Assembly (NCBI GenBank): GCA_025964325.1
Contig: JAOPZA010000213.1
Location: 1 to 33,917 of the forward strand
Length of the DNA stretch: 33,917 nt
From: Conexibacter sp.
GTDB lineage: Bacteria > Actinomycetota > Thermoleophilia > Solirubrobacterales > Solirubrobacteraceae
Direction: 5' to 3'
Below the pieces are notes generated by a model. That model was not told the origin of the DNA. It did not search any database and saw only the letters and a list, made by a program, of their open reading frames with translations. Shown piece by piece: positions 7,010-27,525 of this stretch. A program made the translations under genes and the position numbers. Position 1 is the stretch's first letter; every line of letters starts with the position of its first letter.

Positions 7010-7198
7010 TAGATGGTCGATTCCATCGGATTCGTGGATGCGAGGGGTGCGGTGGGCGGATGCCAGACGTCGCCCGGTGTCGCAGCCGATCCTCGTTGGA
7101 TCGGCTGCGACGCCGGGTGGCGGCTGGCGCCGCCCAACGTGCGCCTCGCGCCGTGAAGGCTGGCGAAGCCAGCCCGAGATCGTGGACTCAATCATCTA
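7010..7198. repeat. Long imperfect palindrome filling an intergenic region
   Basis: The sequence folds back on itself around a 5-nt centre (7093-7097). The innermost 22 nt of the arms (7071-7092 and 7098-7119) agree at 20 positions. The outermost 16 nt also match (TAGATGGTCGATTCCA against the reverse complement of 7183-7198, 13 of 16), so the arms run the whole element. The right arm is about 18 nt longer and carries an extra perfect hairpin (7158-7174, GGCTGGC gaa GCCAGCC). A six-pair stem with loop TGGC lies at 7118-7133. The right end includes the stop codon of the neighbouring membrane-protein gene. No transposase is near. It may end transcription or be a small palindromic mobile element. 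Confidence 0.75.
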
Positions 7199-22145: not shown

Positions 22146-23466
22146 GGACTCCTCCTACGGTTCCGGCGCGCGCATCCTGACGGTCGGGATCGCGTCGACC
22201 GGGATCTTCACGTTCGCGTACCTCGCGCTCGCGAGCCACTCGCTCGACAAGACGGCGTACGGCCGCGTCTCGCTGCTGTGGTCGGTCATGTTCGTGATCC
22301 TGTCGGTGATCTACCGGCCGATCGAGCAGCTGCTCTCGCGCACGATCGCCGACCGCCGCGCCCGCGGCGCCGCGAGCCGGTCGCTGCGCGTGCCGGCGCT
22401 GATCCAAGCTGCCTTCGCGCTGCTGTTCCTGGTCGTCGCGCTGGCGCTGCGCCCGCGCATCGAGACCTCGCTGTTCGACGGCTCCTCGTCGCTCTACTGG
22501 ATCCTCGTCGTCGGCGTGCTGGCCTACGCCGGCAGCTACTTCGCGCGCGGCTGGCTCGCCGGCAACGAGCGCTTCGCGCTCTACGGCGGCCTCGTCTTCC
22601 TCGAGTCGACCTCGCGCTTCCTGTTCGCGCTGGCGGCCGCGCTCGGCATCGCGCACGGCCAGACGGCCGTCTCGATCGGCATGGCGGTCGCGCCGTTCGT
22701 CTCGCTCTGCGTCGTGCCGTTCGCGCTCACGCGCCGCGGCGGCGCGCTGCGGCGCGCGAGCTACGAGGAGCGCGAGGCGCCGGCGGTCGAGGCCGCCTTC
22801 GAAGGGCCCGCGCACGCGCAGGCAGAGGACGCGGCGACCGACCTGTCGATGGCGCACGGCGCTCGCTTCGCGGTCTCGGTCTTCGGGATCATGCTGGCCG
22901 AGCAGGCGCTGATGAACGCGGCGGTGCTGATCGTCAACGCGAAGTCGGGCGCGGCGCTGGCCGGCTTCGTCTTCAACGTGCTGATGATCGTGCGCGCGCC
23001 GCTGCAGCTCTTCCAGGCGGTGCAGACCTCGATCCTCCCCCACCTCGCCGGGCTCGAGGCGCGCGAGAGCGCCGACGAGTTCGCGCGCGCGATCCGCATC
23101 ACGGTTCTGGCGATCGCCGCGTTCGCCGGCGTCTGCGCGGTCGGGCTGCTCGCGATCGGGCCGTGGGTGATGTCGGCGGCGCTCGGCGACAAGGGCTTCA
23201 CCTACGAGCGCGGCGGCCTCGCGCTGGTCGCGGTCGGGATGGGCTTCCACCTCGTCGCCGGCACCCTCAACCAGGCGGCGCTGGCGCGCCATCGCGCCGG
23301 TCTCTCGGCCGCTGCCTGGCTGCTGTCGGCCGCGCTCTTCGTCGGCTGGGTCGCCTCGCCGATCATCAGCGACGTCGTGCTGCGGGTCGAGTCGGGCTAC
23401 TGCGGCGCCGCATTCATCCTCTCGTGCCTGCTGTTCGCGCTCTACCGGCGGCCGGTGGACGCGTAG
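22129..23466 (+). CDS. Polysaccharide flippase, MATE/MOP (Wzx-like)
   Basis: 445 residues, about 12 predicted membrane helices starting at about residue 14 (ILTVGIASTGIFTFAYLALA). The N-terminal SLDKTAYGRVSLLWSVMFVI and RPIEQLLSRTIADRRARG fit the polysaccharide/MATE flippase pattern (helix 2, then a basic loop). A ~45-residue acidic, probably cytoplasmic loop divides the two halves (AHAQAEDAATD). The second half has VLMIVRAPLQLFQAVQTSIL, a hallmark position of Wzx-like proteins. Start is TTG at 22129, overlapping the methyltransferase end by 17 nt; no other start gives the N-terminal helix. It would move a lipid-linked glycan across the membrane. Confidence 0.82.
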   Translation: MSDSDRDSSYGSGARILTVGIASTGIFTFAYLALASHSLDKTAYGRVSLLWSVMFVILSVIYRPIEQLLSRTIADRRARGAASRSLRVPALIQAAFALLFLVVALALRPRIETSLFDGSSSLYWILVVGVLAYAGSYFARGWLAGNERFALYGGLVFLESTSRFLFALAAALGIAHGQTAVSIGMAVAPFVSLCVVPFALTRRGGALRRASYEEREAPAVEAAFEGPAHAQAEDAATDLSMAHGARFAVSVFGIMLAEQALMNAAVLIVNAKSGAALAGFVFNVLMIVRAPLQLFQAVQTSILPHLAGLEARESADEFARAIRITVLAIAAFAGVCAVGLLAIGPWVMSAALGDKGFTYERGGLALVAVGMGFHLVAGTLNQAALARHRAGLSAAAWLLSAALFVGWVASPIISDVVLRVESGYCGAAFILSCLLFALYRRPVDA

Positions 23467-23889
23467 CGCCTGGTGGTGCGCCCCGGCCGAGTGCGCCCTG
23501 CTCCCGCGTGCCCGGTCGCGCGGCGCGTGCGCTGAACGGCGGCCACGAGGGAGGGTGGGCGCCCGGCGAGGTCGGCGGTCCTTTGGCCGCCCCGGTCTCC
23601 CGGATCTCCGTCAACCACTTCGATGACCTCACCTTTTGCCCCCGTAGAGGGGTAAAAGGCTGCACTCATCGGCAACGCGCCAAGCTATTGCGCAGGCCGG
23701 CGCGCGGTTCATCACGGAAGAGCGGAGCGCCAACGACGCCCAAACCCCTCCCCCTCGATGCCCGCCGTTCAGCGCACGCCGCGCGCCACCAGTCCCGGGG
23801 CGGACGGCGCGCCACCGACCCCCGCGCCCCGGCGCCAGCCGCGCGCCCGGCATGCACACGGTGCGCGCACCGTCGTCCATTGAGCAGGC
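23467..23889. other. 423-nt non-coding stretch between the flippase and GMC genes
   Basis: No reading frame here looks coding. The middle (about 23600-23700) is less GC-rich than its surroundings. It holds a large imperfect palindrome (23518-23784) with a central hairpin, described separately. From 23785 to 23889 I see only GC-rich sequence with GCGCGC runs and no recognisable site. It lies between convergent genes, so it could serve termination. Confidence 0.6.
23518..23784. repeat. Large imperfect palindrome with central hairpin
   Basis: Outer arms share an exact 15-bp inverted match, TGCGCTGAACGGCGG (23528-23542) against 23762-23776, plus GCGCGGCG at 23518-23525 and its complement at 23777-23784. 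The inner arms share CGATGA (23621-23626) and TCATCG (23666-23671), leading to a central hairpin CCTTTTGCCCC cgtaga GGGGTAAAAGG (23632-23659; 11 pairs with one G-T). Between inner and outer matches the arms have diverged. It may be a decayed foldback element, a structured RNA gene or a large bidirectional terminator. Confidence 0.7.
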
Positions 23890-26511
23890 TCAGGCCAGCC
23901 GCTGCGCCGCGTAGTGCGCCAGCCCCATCGTGGTCAGCTGCGGGTTGACGGTCAGGCTGCTGGGGAAGACGCTGGCGTCGACGACCGCGAGGTTGTCGTA
24001 GCCGTGGACGCGGAAGTCGGGGCCGATCACGCCCCGTGACGGGTCCCGGCTGAGCGCGTTGCCGCCCTGCGGATGGCCGGTCCCGAGCGAGATGTAGTCG
24101 GGGTCGGCGGCGAGCGCGTCGATCCGTCCGAGCTCCTGCGGCGAGCGGAACTCGTCGTAGCCCCACGTGTTCAGCATCACGCGCTCGGCGCCGGCCGCGA
24201 ACAGTAACGAGCCGAGCGTCTGCAGCCCGCGCGCAAGCGTCCGCAGGTCGCCCTGCGTCGGCACGTAGTGGATGTCGGGGCCGCCCGTCAGCGCCCTTCT
24301 CACGCGCGCGTTGCCCTCCGTCCCGACCAGCACGCCGACCGCCATCATCTGGTCGTAGCGGCGCATGTTCTCGAAGTGCTGCTCGAACCATCCGGGCATG
24401 TTGAGCGCCTGCGCGACGGGCGGGTTGAACCACAGCTCGAAGACGTAGCCGGCGTCGATCCGCGGCACGCCCGCATGGGAGATCTGGAGCCCGTCGTAGG
24501 CGTCCAGCTTGCGCCCGAAGTCGGCCGTCAGCGGCGCCCCCATGTTGAAGCAGAGGCCACGCCCGACGGGCAGCCGCCGGCCGATCCCGCTGCGCAGCAG
24601 CAGGAAGCTGGAGCCGACCGCGCCGGCCGAGAGGACGGCGTCTTCGGCCGTGATCGTGACGGCGCGACCGCCGTCGAGCGTCGCGCGCAGCTCGGTCACG
24701 CGGCGGCCGCGCGTGCGCAGCCGTTCGACTTCGCAGTCGGCGACGATCCGCACTCGCTCGGCGCCGAAGTCGGCCTGCGCGCGCGGCAGCGTGACGTCGA
24801 GCATCGAGAGCTTGTGACCGTAGGCGCAGCCGATGTTGCAGTAGCCGCAGCCGACGCAGCCGTCGATGTTCGCGCGCACGACGCCGGCTGCGAGCGCGTC
24901 GGGCGACATGCCGCTGGCGCGGGCGCCCGCGAGGTACTCCGTCGCGGAGCGGTTCGGGACGGCGTCGTCCTGCGCCCGCACGCGCAGGAACGCCTCGACC
25001 GCGTCGAGGCTCGCGGTCAGCGCGTCGCGATCGAGCGCGGCGTCGTGGCGCCGAGGGTCGTTCCAGCGGTCGAGCACGTGCTCGGGCGGGCGGAAGCAGA
25101 CGGCGTTGTTGACCGTCGTCGAGCCGCCGACGCACTCGCCCTGCAGCACCGTGAAGCGGAAGTCGGCGGTCTGCTGCATGATCCCGTCGCGGTAGAGGCG
25201 GCCGAACATGTCCACCTCGTTCTCGCTGAACTCGTGCGGCTGGACGTAGCTTCCGCGCTCGAGCAGCAGCACGTCGCGGCCCGCCTTCGCGAGCTCGTAG
25301 GCGAGGATCGAGCCGCCCGCGCCGCTGCCGACGATCACGACGTCGGCCTCGAGCCGCTCCCCCACCTCGGCGGCGGCCGTGACCTTCAGCTTCAGCGGCG
25401 GCGATCTGGTCGCCGGCCGGCCGCGCTGCGAGAACGGCACGTAGCCGATCGCCGGCCACGTGCGGCGGTCGTCGTAGTAGCCGGAGAAGACGAGCTGCTG
25501 GCCGACGCGGATCACGACCTGCGTGAGGTGCTTGACGAGCGGCGGCCAGCGCGGCGGCCTCAGGAAGTGGCGCTCGAGGAAGGCACGGCGCCTGACCGGC
25601 TCCAGCTGCGAGAGGACCGGCCAGCCGGACAGCAGCGGGCGCAGCTGGAGCGCCAGCAGCGCGACGCGATAGACCCAGACGCGGTGGGCTCTGACGCTGC
25701 GCATGTAGGACTCGACGTTGGCGGCGACCTCCTCCGGAGGCACCTTCTCGTCGGGGCCGGCGACGAGCACCTCGGCAAGCGCGACGAGCGCGCGGTACTC
25801 GCTCGCGCCGAGGAACGTCAGCCCGTAGCGGGCGCTCCAAGCGGCGTGGCTGGCGAGCGGCAGCGCGACGATGATCGCGACGTCGACGATCACCCAGCCC
25901 CACTGCAGCGGCACGACGCTGATGCGCGCGCCGAAGATCGGCAGCTCGCGGCCGGTCTCGGCGAAGGCGAGGAACGCGAGCCCGACGAACGGCTTGACGG
26001 CGTAGACGCCGATCAGCGGGCCGACCCACTGCAGGCGGCCGCGCAGGTCGCGCGCGATCCAGCCGCAGAGCACGGCGATCGCGGCCGCGCCGAGCGCGGT
26101 GCAGAGCACGAACGGCCAGCGCGCGAAGGCGTCGTGCGTGCCGTTCAGCAGCGCGCCCACCACGGTCGCCACCGCGTCGCCGGCGAACAGCACGCCGAGC
26201 ACGACCAGCACGAGGCGGGTCCGATGCTCCGGCTTTGTTGGCGAGGCCGCGGGCATCTGTCCCACTGCGGGATGTTGGCCGTCAGGCCAACTCCCAAGGC
26301 TCGGCGCAGCCGAGCCCGTGCGCCACAGGAGGAGCAACCCCAACAGCAGCGGCAGCGCGACCGTCGCGTGCACGAACGGCAGCTCGCGGAAGGCGCGCTG
26401 CCAGACGAATGGGGCCGCCACCACGCCCGCGGCGACGAGCAGCAGCACGGCCGCGAGCGCGCGCAACGCCGTCTGGGCACGTCGTCCCGGCGCGTCGGCG
26501 CCACCCGCCAT
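23890..26511 (-). CDS. Membrane-fused GMC oxidoreductase with gluconate-2-dehydrogenase-subunit-3-like middle
   Basis: 873 residues from the ATG at 26511, chosen over an upstream in-frame start for its AAGGAGG site 7 nt before. Residues 1-230: about six membrane helices. 230-330: a helical segment (GLTFLGASEYRALVALAEVL to LEPVRRRAFLERHF) resembling the gluconate 2-dehydrogenase subunit 3 domain (tentative). 385-873: GMC flavoprotein with FAD loop DVVIVGSGAGGSILAYELAK, GECVGGSTTVNNAVC, a CVGCGYCNIGCAYGHK motif (Cys 552, 555, 558, 562) as in cholesterol oxidase or long-chain alcohol oxidase relatives, and C-terminal GTGHPQGGNAL with the NPQLT active-site block. Substrate unknown, likely a lipid alcohol or sterol. 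Residues ~65-80 are encoded by palindromic DNA (see 26274). Confidence 0.85.
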   Translation of the reverse strand: MAGGADAPGRRAQTALRALAAVLLLVAAGVVAAPFVWQRAFRELPFVHATVALPLLLGLLLLWRTGSAAPSLGSWPDGQHPAVGQMPAASPTKPEHRTRLVLVVLGVLFAGDAVATVVGALLNGTHDAFARWPFVLCTALGAAAIAVLCGWIARDLRGRLQWVGPLIGVYAVKPFVGLAFLAFAETGRELPIFGARISVVPLQWGWVIVDVAIIVALPLASHAAWSARYGLTFLGASEYRALVALAEVLVAGPDEKVPPEEVAANVESYMRSVRAHRVWVYRVALLALQLRPLLSGWPVLSQLEPVRRRAFLERHFLRPPRWPPLVKHLTQVVIRVGQQLVFSGYYDDRRTWPAIGYVPFSQRGRPATRSPPLKLKVTAAAEVGERLEADVVIVGSGAGGSILAYELAKAGRDVLLLERGSYVQPHEFSENEVDMFGRLYRDGIMQQTADFRFTVLQGECVGGSTTVNNAVCFRPPEHVLDRWNDPRRHDAALDRDALTASLDAVEAFLRVRAQDDAVPNRSATEYLAGARASGMSPDALAAGVVRANIDGCVGCGYCNIGCAYGHKLSMLDVTLPRAQADFGAERVRIVADCEVERLRTRGRRVTELRATLDGGRAVTITAEDAVLSAGAVGSSFLLLRSGIGRRLPVGRGLCFNMGAPLTADFGRKLDAYDGLQISHAGVPRIDAGYVFELWFNPPVAQALNMPGWFEQHFENMRRYDQMMAVGVLVGTEGNARVRRALTGGPDIHYVPTQGDLRTLARGLQTLGSLLFAAGAERVMLNTWGYDEFRSPQELGRIDALAADPDYISLGTGHPQGGNALSRDPSRGVIGPDFRVHGYDNLAVVDASVFPSSLTVNPQLTTMGLAHYAAQRLA
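26274..26316. repeat. Two hairpins inside the GMC reading frame
   Basis: GTTGGCC gtca GGCCAAC (26274-26291) and GGCTCGGC gca GCCGAGCC (26298-26316), both perfect stems. The second has the same 11-bp core (CGGCGCAGCCG) as the hairpin at 14834-14856, with a different but complementary flank. They encode a low-complexity Gly/Ser/Pro stretch in a loop between two membrane helices, as expected of an in-frame insertion. Confidence 0.7.
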
Positions 26512-26528
26512 CCCGGCCCCTCCTTGAT

Positions 26529-26545
26529 GGACCGTGAAGCGGTCC
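26529..26545. promoter_or_regulatory. Operator-like palindrome before the GMC gene
   Basis: GGACCG tgaag CGGTCC, a perfect six-base inverted repeat with a 5-nt spacer. It lies between the -10 box (26564-26569) and the ribosome site, starting about 12 nt after the expected transcription start. Could be a repressor site or a leader hairpin; no regulator is adjacent. Confidence 0.45.
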
Positions 26546-26563
26546 GTCGCCCTGGTGCGGGCC

Positions 26564-26592
26564 ACGGTACCCGCCCGCCGGCGGAGGGTCAA
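26564..26592 (-). promoter_or_regulatory. Sigma-70-type promoter of the GMC gene
   Basis: Minus strand: -35 TTGACC (26592-26587), 17-nt spacer, -10 TACCGT (26569-26564). It is the best promoter match in the window. Expected start near 26557, giving a leader of about 46 nt with an AAGGAGG ribosome site. Confidence 0.6.
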
Positions 26593-26753
26593 GCCGGCGG
26601 GCGGGGGTGCGCGGGGAAGGTCGACGCGGCGGGATCCTCATTCGTAGGCGAGGCTCTCAGCACGTCGAGCTCGGCGGCGCGGCGAGCCGCCCCGATCGCC
26701 GCCAGCAGGCCCGCGATCGCCGCCAGGATCAGCAGGACGATCAGGTTCGGCAG
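26589..26753 (-). CDS. Possible small membrane peptide or gene remnant
   Basis: About 54 codons between rpe and the GMC gene: a CTG (26753), PNLIVLLILAAIAGLLAAIG (one membrane helix), then ARRAAELDVLRASPTNED and a Pro-rich end. There is no ATG, GTG or TTG in the frame after the preceding stop, so it is either CTG-initiated or the tail of a lost gene. The stop lies within the -35 box of the GMC promoter. Low confidence that it is expressed. Confidence 0.25.
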   Translation of the reverse strand: MPNLIVLLILAAIAGLLAAIGAARRAAELDVLRASPTNEDPAASTFPAHPRPPA

Positions 26754-26838
26754 GGGATCGAGAGCGCAAGCCCTCGCTGCGCAGGGGGATCGTCACGAGC
26801 ACGGGGCAGACCCCGCCGCCCGCCCGGGGGCGCCGCCC

Positions 26839-27525
26839 TCAGACGGCGCCGGCCGCCGCTGCGATCGCGGCGTAGGCGGCGGCCGGGTCCGCCGCGCCGA
26901 AGATCGCGGAGCCGGCGACGAACACGTTCGCGCCCGCCTCCGCGCACGGTCCGGCGGTCGCCGGATCGACGCCGCCGTCGACCTCGAGCGCCGTCCCCGC
27001 CGGCAGCAGGTCGCGCAGCCGCGCGACCTTGTCGAGCGAGGCGGGGATGAACGGCTGGCCGCCCCAGCCGGGGTTCACGGTCATGCAGAGCGCCATCTCG
27101 AGCAGGTCGGCGACCTCCGCGAGCGCGCTCGGCGGCGTGCCGGGGTTGATCGCCGCGCTCGGACTGGCGCCCGCCTCGCGGACGGCGGAGAGCGCGTAGT
27201 TCAGGTGCGGGGTCGCCTCGACGTGGACCGTGATCGAGTCGGCGCCGGCGCGCGCGTACTCGGCGACGGTGCGCTCCGGCCGCTCGATCATCAGGTGGAC
27301 GTCGAGGATCGCGCCGGCGGCGTGGACCTGGTCGGCGAGGGCGCCGACGACGAGCGGGCCGATCGTGATCGGCGGGACGAAGTGCCCGTCCATCACGTCG
27401 ACGTGGATGACGCGCGCGCCCGCGTCGAGCACCTCGCCGACCTGGGCGCCGAGGCGCGCGAAGTCGGCCGACAGGATCGATGGCGCGATGCGCCGCCGGC
27501 GCAGCAGCTCGGTGGTCGTGGTCAT
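26839..27525 (-). CDS. rpe: Ribulose-phosphate 3-epimerase
   Basis: Interconverts ribulose-5-P and xylulose-5-P in the pentose phosphate pathway. 228 residues, TIM barrel. IAPSILSADFARLGAQ, metal-site VIHVDVMDGHFVPPITIG, LDVHLMIERPE, ITVHVEA, MTVNPGWGGQPFIPASLDKV and LEVDGGVDPATA all match the family, with the catalytic Asp pair and metal His kept. The start at 27525 gives the standard N-terminus. It supplies ribulose-5-P, the RibB substrate, and its usual neighbours rsmB, fmt and ribD are in this window. Confidence 0.97.
   Translation of the reverse strand: MTTTTELLRRRRIAPSILSADFARLGAQVGEVLDAGARVIHVDVMDGHFVPPITIGPLVVGALADQVHAAGAILDVHLMIERPERTVAEYARAGADSITVHVEATPHLNYALSAVREAGASPSAAINPGTPPSALAEVADLLEMALCMTVNPGWGGQPFIPASLDKVARLRDLLPAGTALEVDGGVDPATAGPCAEAGANVFVAGSAIFGAADPAAAYAAIAAAAGAV

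What the first reader, a model, noticed from the sequence alone, without database searches (positions are those of the whole stretch)
23518..23784. Second long palindrome in the only large non-coding stretch
Seen: exact 15-bp outer inverted match, inner CGATGA/TCATCG match and an 11-pair central hairpin, concentric on about 23645-23651, with less GC-rich sequence in the middle. It lies next to the inserted surface/GMC genes. Inference: remnant of a mobile foldback element that came with the cassette, or a non-coding RNA.
Basis: partly seen in the sequence, partly recalled or inferred. Interest (0 to 1): 0.55.

Follow-up and report, generated by a model that had tools for sequence, protein, structure and literature searches.

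The report
Dispersed framed palindrome in soil actinobacteria
The palindrome is real and is one worn copy of a family of roughly 49-letter hairpins scattered between genes in Conexibacter and a related genus, where they probably help end transcription of facing genes; how they spread is unknown.

Summary
Between two convergent genes (23467-23889) lies an 18-bp exact inverted repeat (23525-23542/23762-23779), inside 42-nt arms, around a hairpin at 23621-23671. No shuffle matched it (0/200 folds, 0/1000 for arm length).

It is not a one-off. The hairpin belongs to a dispersed family in Conexibacter: about 23-25 bp of stem with a short loop in a fixed register, and stem sequences that differ between species but are similar within one. 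Of 66 fetched copies, 61 lie between genes and 31 of those between convergent genes (control 48/345). No Rfam family matches. There is no U-tract, and no Y1 (REP-type) transposase in 7 Conexibacter genomes.

The outer arms are a second repeated module. In another genus (genome G014) the same box recurs between genes and frames 47-49-bp palindromes of at least five unrelated sequence types.

Best reading: the window copy is a degenerate composite of frame plus hairpin, acting as a bidirectional 3'-end/termination hairpin. Dispersal is shown; the mobilising process and the termination activity are not. There is no evidence that it arrived with the GMC gene, and a one-strand ncRNA is disfavoured. 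New variant of the REP/MITE kind.

The parts
23467..23889 (.). non-coding spacer between two convergent genes
23504..23545 (+). left outer arm (42 nt, 81% complementary to 23759-23800); exact 18 bp at 23525-23542
23759..23800 (-). right outer arm; exact 18 bp at 23762-23779
23529..23568 (+). left copy of the repeated C-box (GCGCTGAACGGCGGCCACGAGGGAGGG)
   Evidence: R3 match 29.1 bits (this copy is in the training set)
23739..23775 (-). right, inverted copy of the C-box; core AACGGCGGGCATCGAGG exact only here and at G000:C214
   Evidence: R3 match 27.4 bits (in training set); pattern search
23621..23671 (+). central hairpin, a degenerate member of the dispersed 49-bp palindrome family
   Evidence: R1 68.9 bits and R2 34.9 bits, both models trained with it
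23666..23682 (+). TCATCGGCAACGCGCCA, 3' base and flank of the hairpin, also found at G000:C26 (L007)
23703..23724 (+). B-box CGCGGTTCATCACGGAAGAGCG, resembling CGCGGTTCGT..CGAAACCGCG at G000:C214 and G000:C109
22129..23466 (+). left gene, 445 aa; no Pfam match at 1e-5
23890..26466 (-). right gene, GMC oxidoreductase

Best explanation
The feature is a composite, partly decayed copy of a dispersed extragenic palindrome of Conexibacter and relatives. Its core is a hairpin of one fixed geometry (about 23-25 bp stem, short loop, 47-49 bp in good copies). In some copies, as here, the core is framed by an inverted pair of C-boxes, giving a concentric palindrome of about 250-330 bp. Shown: the family exists, its pairing is conserved while its sequence is species-specific, it lies between genes with a strong excess between convergent ones, and the frame recurs in another genus with several unrelated hairpin types. 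Inferred: each copy works as a hairpin at the 3' ends of both facing transcripts, i.e. a bidirectional terminator or 3'-end stabiliser without U-tract. Also inferred: copies spread by an unidentified copying process and are then kept or replaced by other hairpins.
For: Own-genome BLAST matches to the window spacer: C214 E 7.5e-11 (74% over 115 bp), C118, C59, C26. Same register and covariation in 4 seeds: 84% of cells paired and 13 of 25 pairs with double changes, against 35-45% and 2-6 when the 3' side is slid. 56 copies: 87% paired, 23 of 25 pairs with double changes, slid versions 35-43% paired (rows were found with R1, so this leans to the structure). Stem identity within genomes 0.80 (G004), 0.66 (G001), 0.64 (G003), 0.56 (G000), 0.46 (G002), between genomes 0.52. 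Context: 61 of 66 loci between genes, 31 convergent, 24 tandem, 6 divergent, 5 inside; control pairs 48 of 345 convergent; Fisher p 1.2e-9. At two orthologous convergent pairs (PrmA/GDSL and MurG/right gene), 5 of 5 comparisons without the family hairpin show unrelated strong hairpins at that place, as expected if a hairpin is needed there. C-box hits in G014: 12 of 15 fetched non-training hits are between genes, and 7 of those 12 have a hairpin of score 15 or more within 200 bp downstream; controls 4 of 172 coding and 2 of 43 intergenic windows.
Against: No U-tract on either side and no terminator-like site by the simple scan. Copies also sit between tandem and, in 6 of 66 loci, divergent genes. 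Stem identity within G002 (0.46) is not above the between-genome mean. The window copy is weak against R2 (34.9 bits) although R2 was trained with it, and it is not among the listed hits at E <= 1e-4. Copy numbers found (tens) look far below the likely number of convergent pairs, so these are not the general terminators of the genome (inference). No transcript data were available.
Confidence: 0.55

Rival explanations
1. A MITE-like mobile element: the C-box arms are terminal inverted repeats recognised by a transposase, the hairpin is cargo, and the preference for convergent spacers only reflects where insertions do no harm.
For: Arms are inverted, recur in several species and in at least 15 loci; repeat families are mostly species-specific; 61 of 66 copies avoid genes.
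Against: No autonomous parent seen: no transposase among the neighbours scanned, no Y1_Tnp in 7 genus genomes; most Conexibacter copies have the hairpin without arms; orthologous sites hold other hairpins instead of clean empty sites. Other transposase families were not searched and target-site duplications were not established.
Confidence: 0.22
2. A DNA-level site (cruciform or protein-binding palindrome, e.g. for a nucleoid or repair protein) with no role in RNA.
For: Symmetry is equal on both strands (G-U 51, A-C 42, p 0.41); fixed geometry with variable sequence.
Against: Excess at 3' ends and between convergent genes is not predicted by it.
Confidence: 0.12
3. A structured non-coding RNA made from 23518-23784.
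For: Strong fold on both strands.
Against: No Rfam match even at E 10; no strand bias; arms and core occur independently; no sigma-70-like promoter in 23300-24000.
Confidence: 0.06
4. A chance palindrome in GC-rich spacer DNA.
For: GC-rich sequence makes inverted repeats common (one search lists 36 pairs).
Against: 0 of 1000 shuffles reach the 18-bp repeat, fold z -7.2, homologues of both modules.
Confidence: 0.02

Closest known systems
REP elements / BIMEs with RAYT (IS200/IS605-type Y1) transposases
   Same: Dispersed extragenic palindromes, species-specific sequence, imperfect palindrome, several types per genome.
   Different: Stem about 23-25 bp against mostly 6-9 bp (PMC3733652, passages read); no GTAG/GTGG or CGTC tag above control; no Y1_Tnp in the genus; tens of copies found rather than over 100 (PMC2817692, passages read).
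CGTC-tagged REPs (no dedicated transposase; PMC3733652, passages read)
   Same: Short palindromic repeats without associated transposase.
   Different: No CGTC tag above control (11 of 57 against 7-10 of 57 for control words); much longer stem; a frame of C-boxes.
MITEs (Correia, RUP and others; named in the passages read)
   Same: Inverted arms, a few hundred bp, between genes, fold into hairpins.
   Different: Arms optional, core exchangeable, no parent element found; target-site duplication not established.
Uptake-signal terminators of Neisseria/Pasteurellaceae (PMC1852404, passages read)
   Same: A dispersed repeat that forms hairpins at gene ends.
   Different: Here the whole 49-bp palindrome is the repeat; no U-tract; tens rather than about 1000 copies.

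Membership tests
REP/BIME (RAYT-associated) | Y1 (RAYT) transposase in the genome | tested here: not met
   PF01797: 0 of 7 genus genomes, control rings in 5 of 14; not tested in G014
REP/BIME (RAYT-associated) | GTAG/GTGG tag at one end | tested here: not met
   GTAG 3, GTGG 2 of 57 copies; control words 7-10 of 57
REP/BIME (RAYT-associated) | dispersed extragenic palindrome, many copies | tested here: met
   copies in the tens, fewer than usual for REPs
CGTC REP | CGTC tag at one end | tested here: not met
   11 of 57 against 7-10 for control words
MITE | terminal inverted repeats | tested here: inconclusive
   window arms 42 nt at 81%; both arms recognisable in only a few other copies
MITE | target-site duplication | not tested
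   element ends not sharp; no close empty site at hand
MITE | parent transposase in trans | tested here: inconclusive
   no transposase among neighbours scanned; only Y1_Tnp searched genome-wide
Intrinsic (rho-independent) terminator | GC-rich hairpin followed by T-run | tested here: not met
   hairpin present; no T enrichment on either side, 0 terminator-like sites in 23300-24000
Bidirectional terminator of convergent genes | location between convergent gene ends | tested here: met
   31 of 61 intergenic copies against 48 of 345 control pairs
Bidirectional terminator of convergent genes | stops transcription | not testable with these tools
   no RNA data
Known structured RNA family (Rfam 15) | covariance-model match | tested here: not met

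The most novel reading that the evidence does not exclude
A modular class of mobile palindrome: a conserved frame (inverted C-boxes) that carries exchangeable 47-49-bp hairpin cores of unrelated sequence but identical geometry. At least five core types share the frame in one genome (G014). It would be mobilised by something other than a REP-type Y1 transposase and domesticated as bidirectional gene-end hairpins in Solirubrobacteraceae.
Probability: 0.3. Interest if true: 0.65.

Novelty: new variant of a known kind. Interest (0 to 1): 0.45.

Why it matters
It gives a named, searchable repeat family in a poorly studied actinobacterial lineage. It also raises a testable question: how can hairpins of fixed size but changing sequence multiply in genomes without a REP-type transposase, and do these high-GC bacteria use them in place of U-tract terminators.

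Tried and rejected
Rfam, including E up to 10: nothing. Plasmid and phage collections: no match. Matches of the spacer in relatives at E 1e-3 to 1e-5: those I read (L021-L025, L028, L043, L044, L047) lay mostly in what looked like coding DNA and seemed to be chance matches of GC-rich codons, also the 23/23 match in G026; dropped. The pattern CTCATCGGCAACGCG with 2 mismatches gave 115 hits in the own genome, mostly of the kind expected by chance (reversed control 47). All-against-all tblastx of the loci gave only 4 weak pairs and no orthologous pair useful for a site comparison. R1 on 33 of the 35 left-gene relatives found no family hairpin: 8 hits, best 16.2 bits, E 0.28; the relatives' next gene differs from the window's, so this is no clean empty site. 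REP/RAYT membership rejected.

Weak points: the gene caller is my own and crude. R1 has 4 seeds, including the window. The context count rests on 65 places taken from those listed plus C214; matches in G005, G006, G008, G032, G063, G073, G075, G111 and G116 were not read, and not every listed match in the genomes I used was taken. In A2, 2 of 58 Conexibacter rows were dropped (a near-duplicate in L148, and L180), and the G014 rows were left out as another type. The 15 G014 C-box loci were my choice, mostly the higher-scoring non-training hits plus some that came in pairs. In one search the two L304 hairpins are counted again in L344. One search scored at most 18 candidates per genome, so absence outside Conexibacter is a weak negative.

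Full report
Observation. The spacer 23467-23889 lies between a + gene ending at 23466 and a - gene (GMC oxidoreductase) ending at 23890. It holds the longest inverted repeat listed for the window: 42-nt arms, 81% complementary, with an exact 18-bp core (23525-23542/23762-23779). Inside lies the hairpin 23621-23671. The region folds far better than shuffles (z -7.2 and -6.6, 0 of 200 each), and none of 1000 shuffles of the spacer has an exact inverted repeat of 18 bp.

Relatives of the hairpin. BLAST of the spacer in the own genome found C214 (E 7.5e-11, window 23665-23779, 74%), C118, C59 and C26. At C214 and C26, and at a place in a second Conexibacter genome found by a pattern that fixed only the 5-bp base and five letters of the flank, the same palindrome stands in the same register with a different stem sequence. 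On these four the stem is 84% paired with 13 of 25 pairs doubly changed; sliding one side drops this to 35-45% and 2-6. A covariance model from the four (R1) found 27 matches in the own genome, 35 in G004, 29 in G001, 23 in G003 and 22 in G014 at E <= 0.5; palindromes are often hit on both strands, so loci are about half of these. Overall 65 of 146 family genomes had a match at that loose limit. I examined 65 of the listed places plus C214. The 56-row alignment shows a fixed stem with a short loop; 87% of cells pair and 23 of 25 pairs show double changes, with the caveat that rows were found with the model. Stems are alike within three genomes (0.80 in G004, 0.66 in G001, 0.64 in G003), less so in G000 (0.56) and not in G002 (0.46), against 0.52 between genomes. 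With the larger model, 3 of 299 class genomes, all of the window's genus, had a match at E <= 1e-4 (at most 18 candidates scored per genome). The genus is Conexibacter by the closest named relatives of the left gene.

Place and symmetry. With a simple codon-based gene caller, 61 of 66 copies lie between genes: 31 convergent, 24 tandem, 6 divergent; 5 were inside predicted genes. Control gene pairs were 48 of 345 convergent, Fisher p 1.2e-9. Several copies are squeezed between two stop codons, and in the G004 PrmA/GDSL pair the base of the hairpin supplies a stop codon. No T-run follows the stem on either side. G-U and A-C oppositions are about equally common (51 and 42), which speaks against a function on one strand only.

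Orthologous sites. PrmA/GDSL is shared by G004 (family hairpin), G002 and G005; MurG and its convergent neighbour by G003 (family hairpin), G002, G004 and G005. In 5 of 5 comparisons without the family hairpin, another, unrelated strong hairpin fills the spacer. A hairpin of some kind seems to be wanted there, and the dispersed palindrome is one way of providing it (inference).

The outer arms. The arm is a second repeated module, the C-box. Its core AACGGCGGGCATCGAGG is exact only in the window's right arm and at C214. Related boxes stand beside hairpins in G001 (C291 on both sides, C659), G002 and G014. A sequence model of 15 boxes (R3) gave 48 hits at E <= 1 in G014 against 7-15 in each of nine other genomes. 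Of 15 further G014 hits that I fetched, 12 lie between genes; 7 of those 12 have a hairpin of score 15 or more within 200 bp downstream and 9 of 12 at 13 or more, against 0 of 3 inside genes at either limit, 4 and 15 of 172 coding windows, and 2 and 4 of 43 intergenic windows. The G014 cores are palindromes of the same size class but several unrelated types (GTGAGTGGGGA, CCTGGAGTTGACC, CCTGTCATC, ACGCCTCGTGCATGC and GGGGACTTGGGGTC series), and a 351-bp element from G014 has 61 BLAST matches in that genome. In Conexibacter most copies have the hairpin without the frame; the window is one of the few with both arms.

What it is and how it works. Shown: a dispersed family of gene-end palindromes with conserved geometry, and a frame that can hold different cores. 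Inferred: it acts as a hairpin at the 3' ends of both convergent transcripts, and copies spread by an unknown copying process. REP membership fails on the transposase (0 of 7 genomes) and on the end tags; a canonical intrinsic terminator fails on the T-run; MITE membership is open. The GMC gene is not beside the left gene in any of 35 relatives, so that junction is variable, but nothing ties the palindrome to it.

Literature. Searches for such repeats in Conexibacter, Solirubrobacter/Solirubrobacterales and for dispersed terminator palindromes listed no paper whose title or shown abstract describes them. Seen: passages of PMC3733652, PMC2817692, PMC1852404, PMC3035278 and PMC5294841; abstract, outline and one passage of PMC12306157. 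The C. woesei genome paper has no 'palindrom', 'hairpin' or 'intergenic' in its held text. The library is open-access only, so this is a weak negative.

Noticed in passing
7062-7128: The other long palindrome: 31-nt arms, 87% complementary, 5 nt between them, in a gap between predicted tandem genes. It scores only about 12 bits with R1, so it is not clearly of this family.
   Followed up: partly
23467-27525: The genes next to the left gene differ between Conexibacter relatives (FtsX/MacB permease, RHS, PIN, VTT-domain protein; GMC here), which suggests a variable insertion spot.
   Followed up: partly
L306, L308, L298, L191 (G014): Some intergenic regions of G014 carry two or three hairpins of different types with C-boxes between them, like small arrays.
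   Followed up: no
L296, L299, L304 (G014): A further hairpin type, GGCGGATTCTCCG and its complement, recurs near these elements.
   Followed up: no
L247, about 2340-2390: In the PrmA/GDSL pair of G004 the palindrome base CTCATC provides the stop codon of the facing gene.
   Followed up: no
C. woesei (PMC5294841, passage): That paper names C. woesei among genomes with unexplained false-CRISPR repeats; whether these overlap the palindromes was not checked.
   Followed up: no
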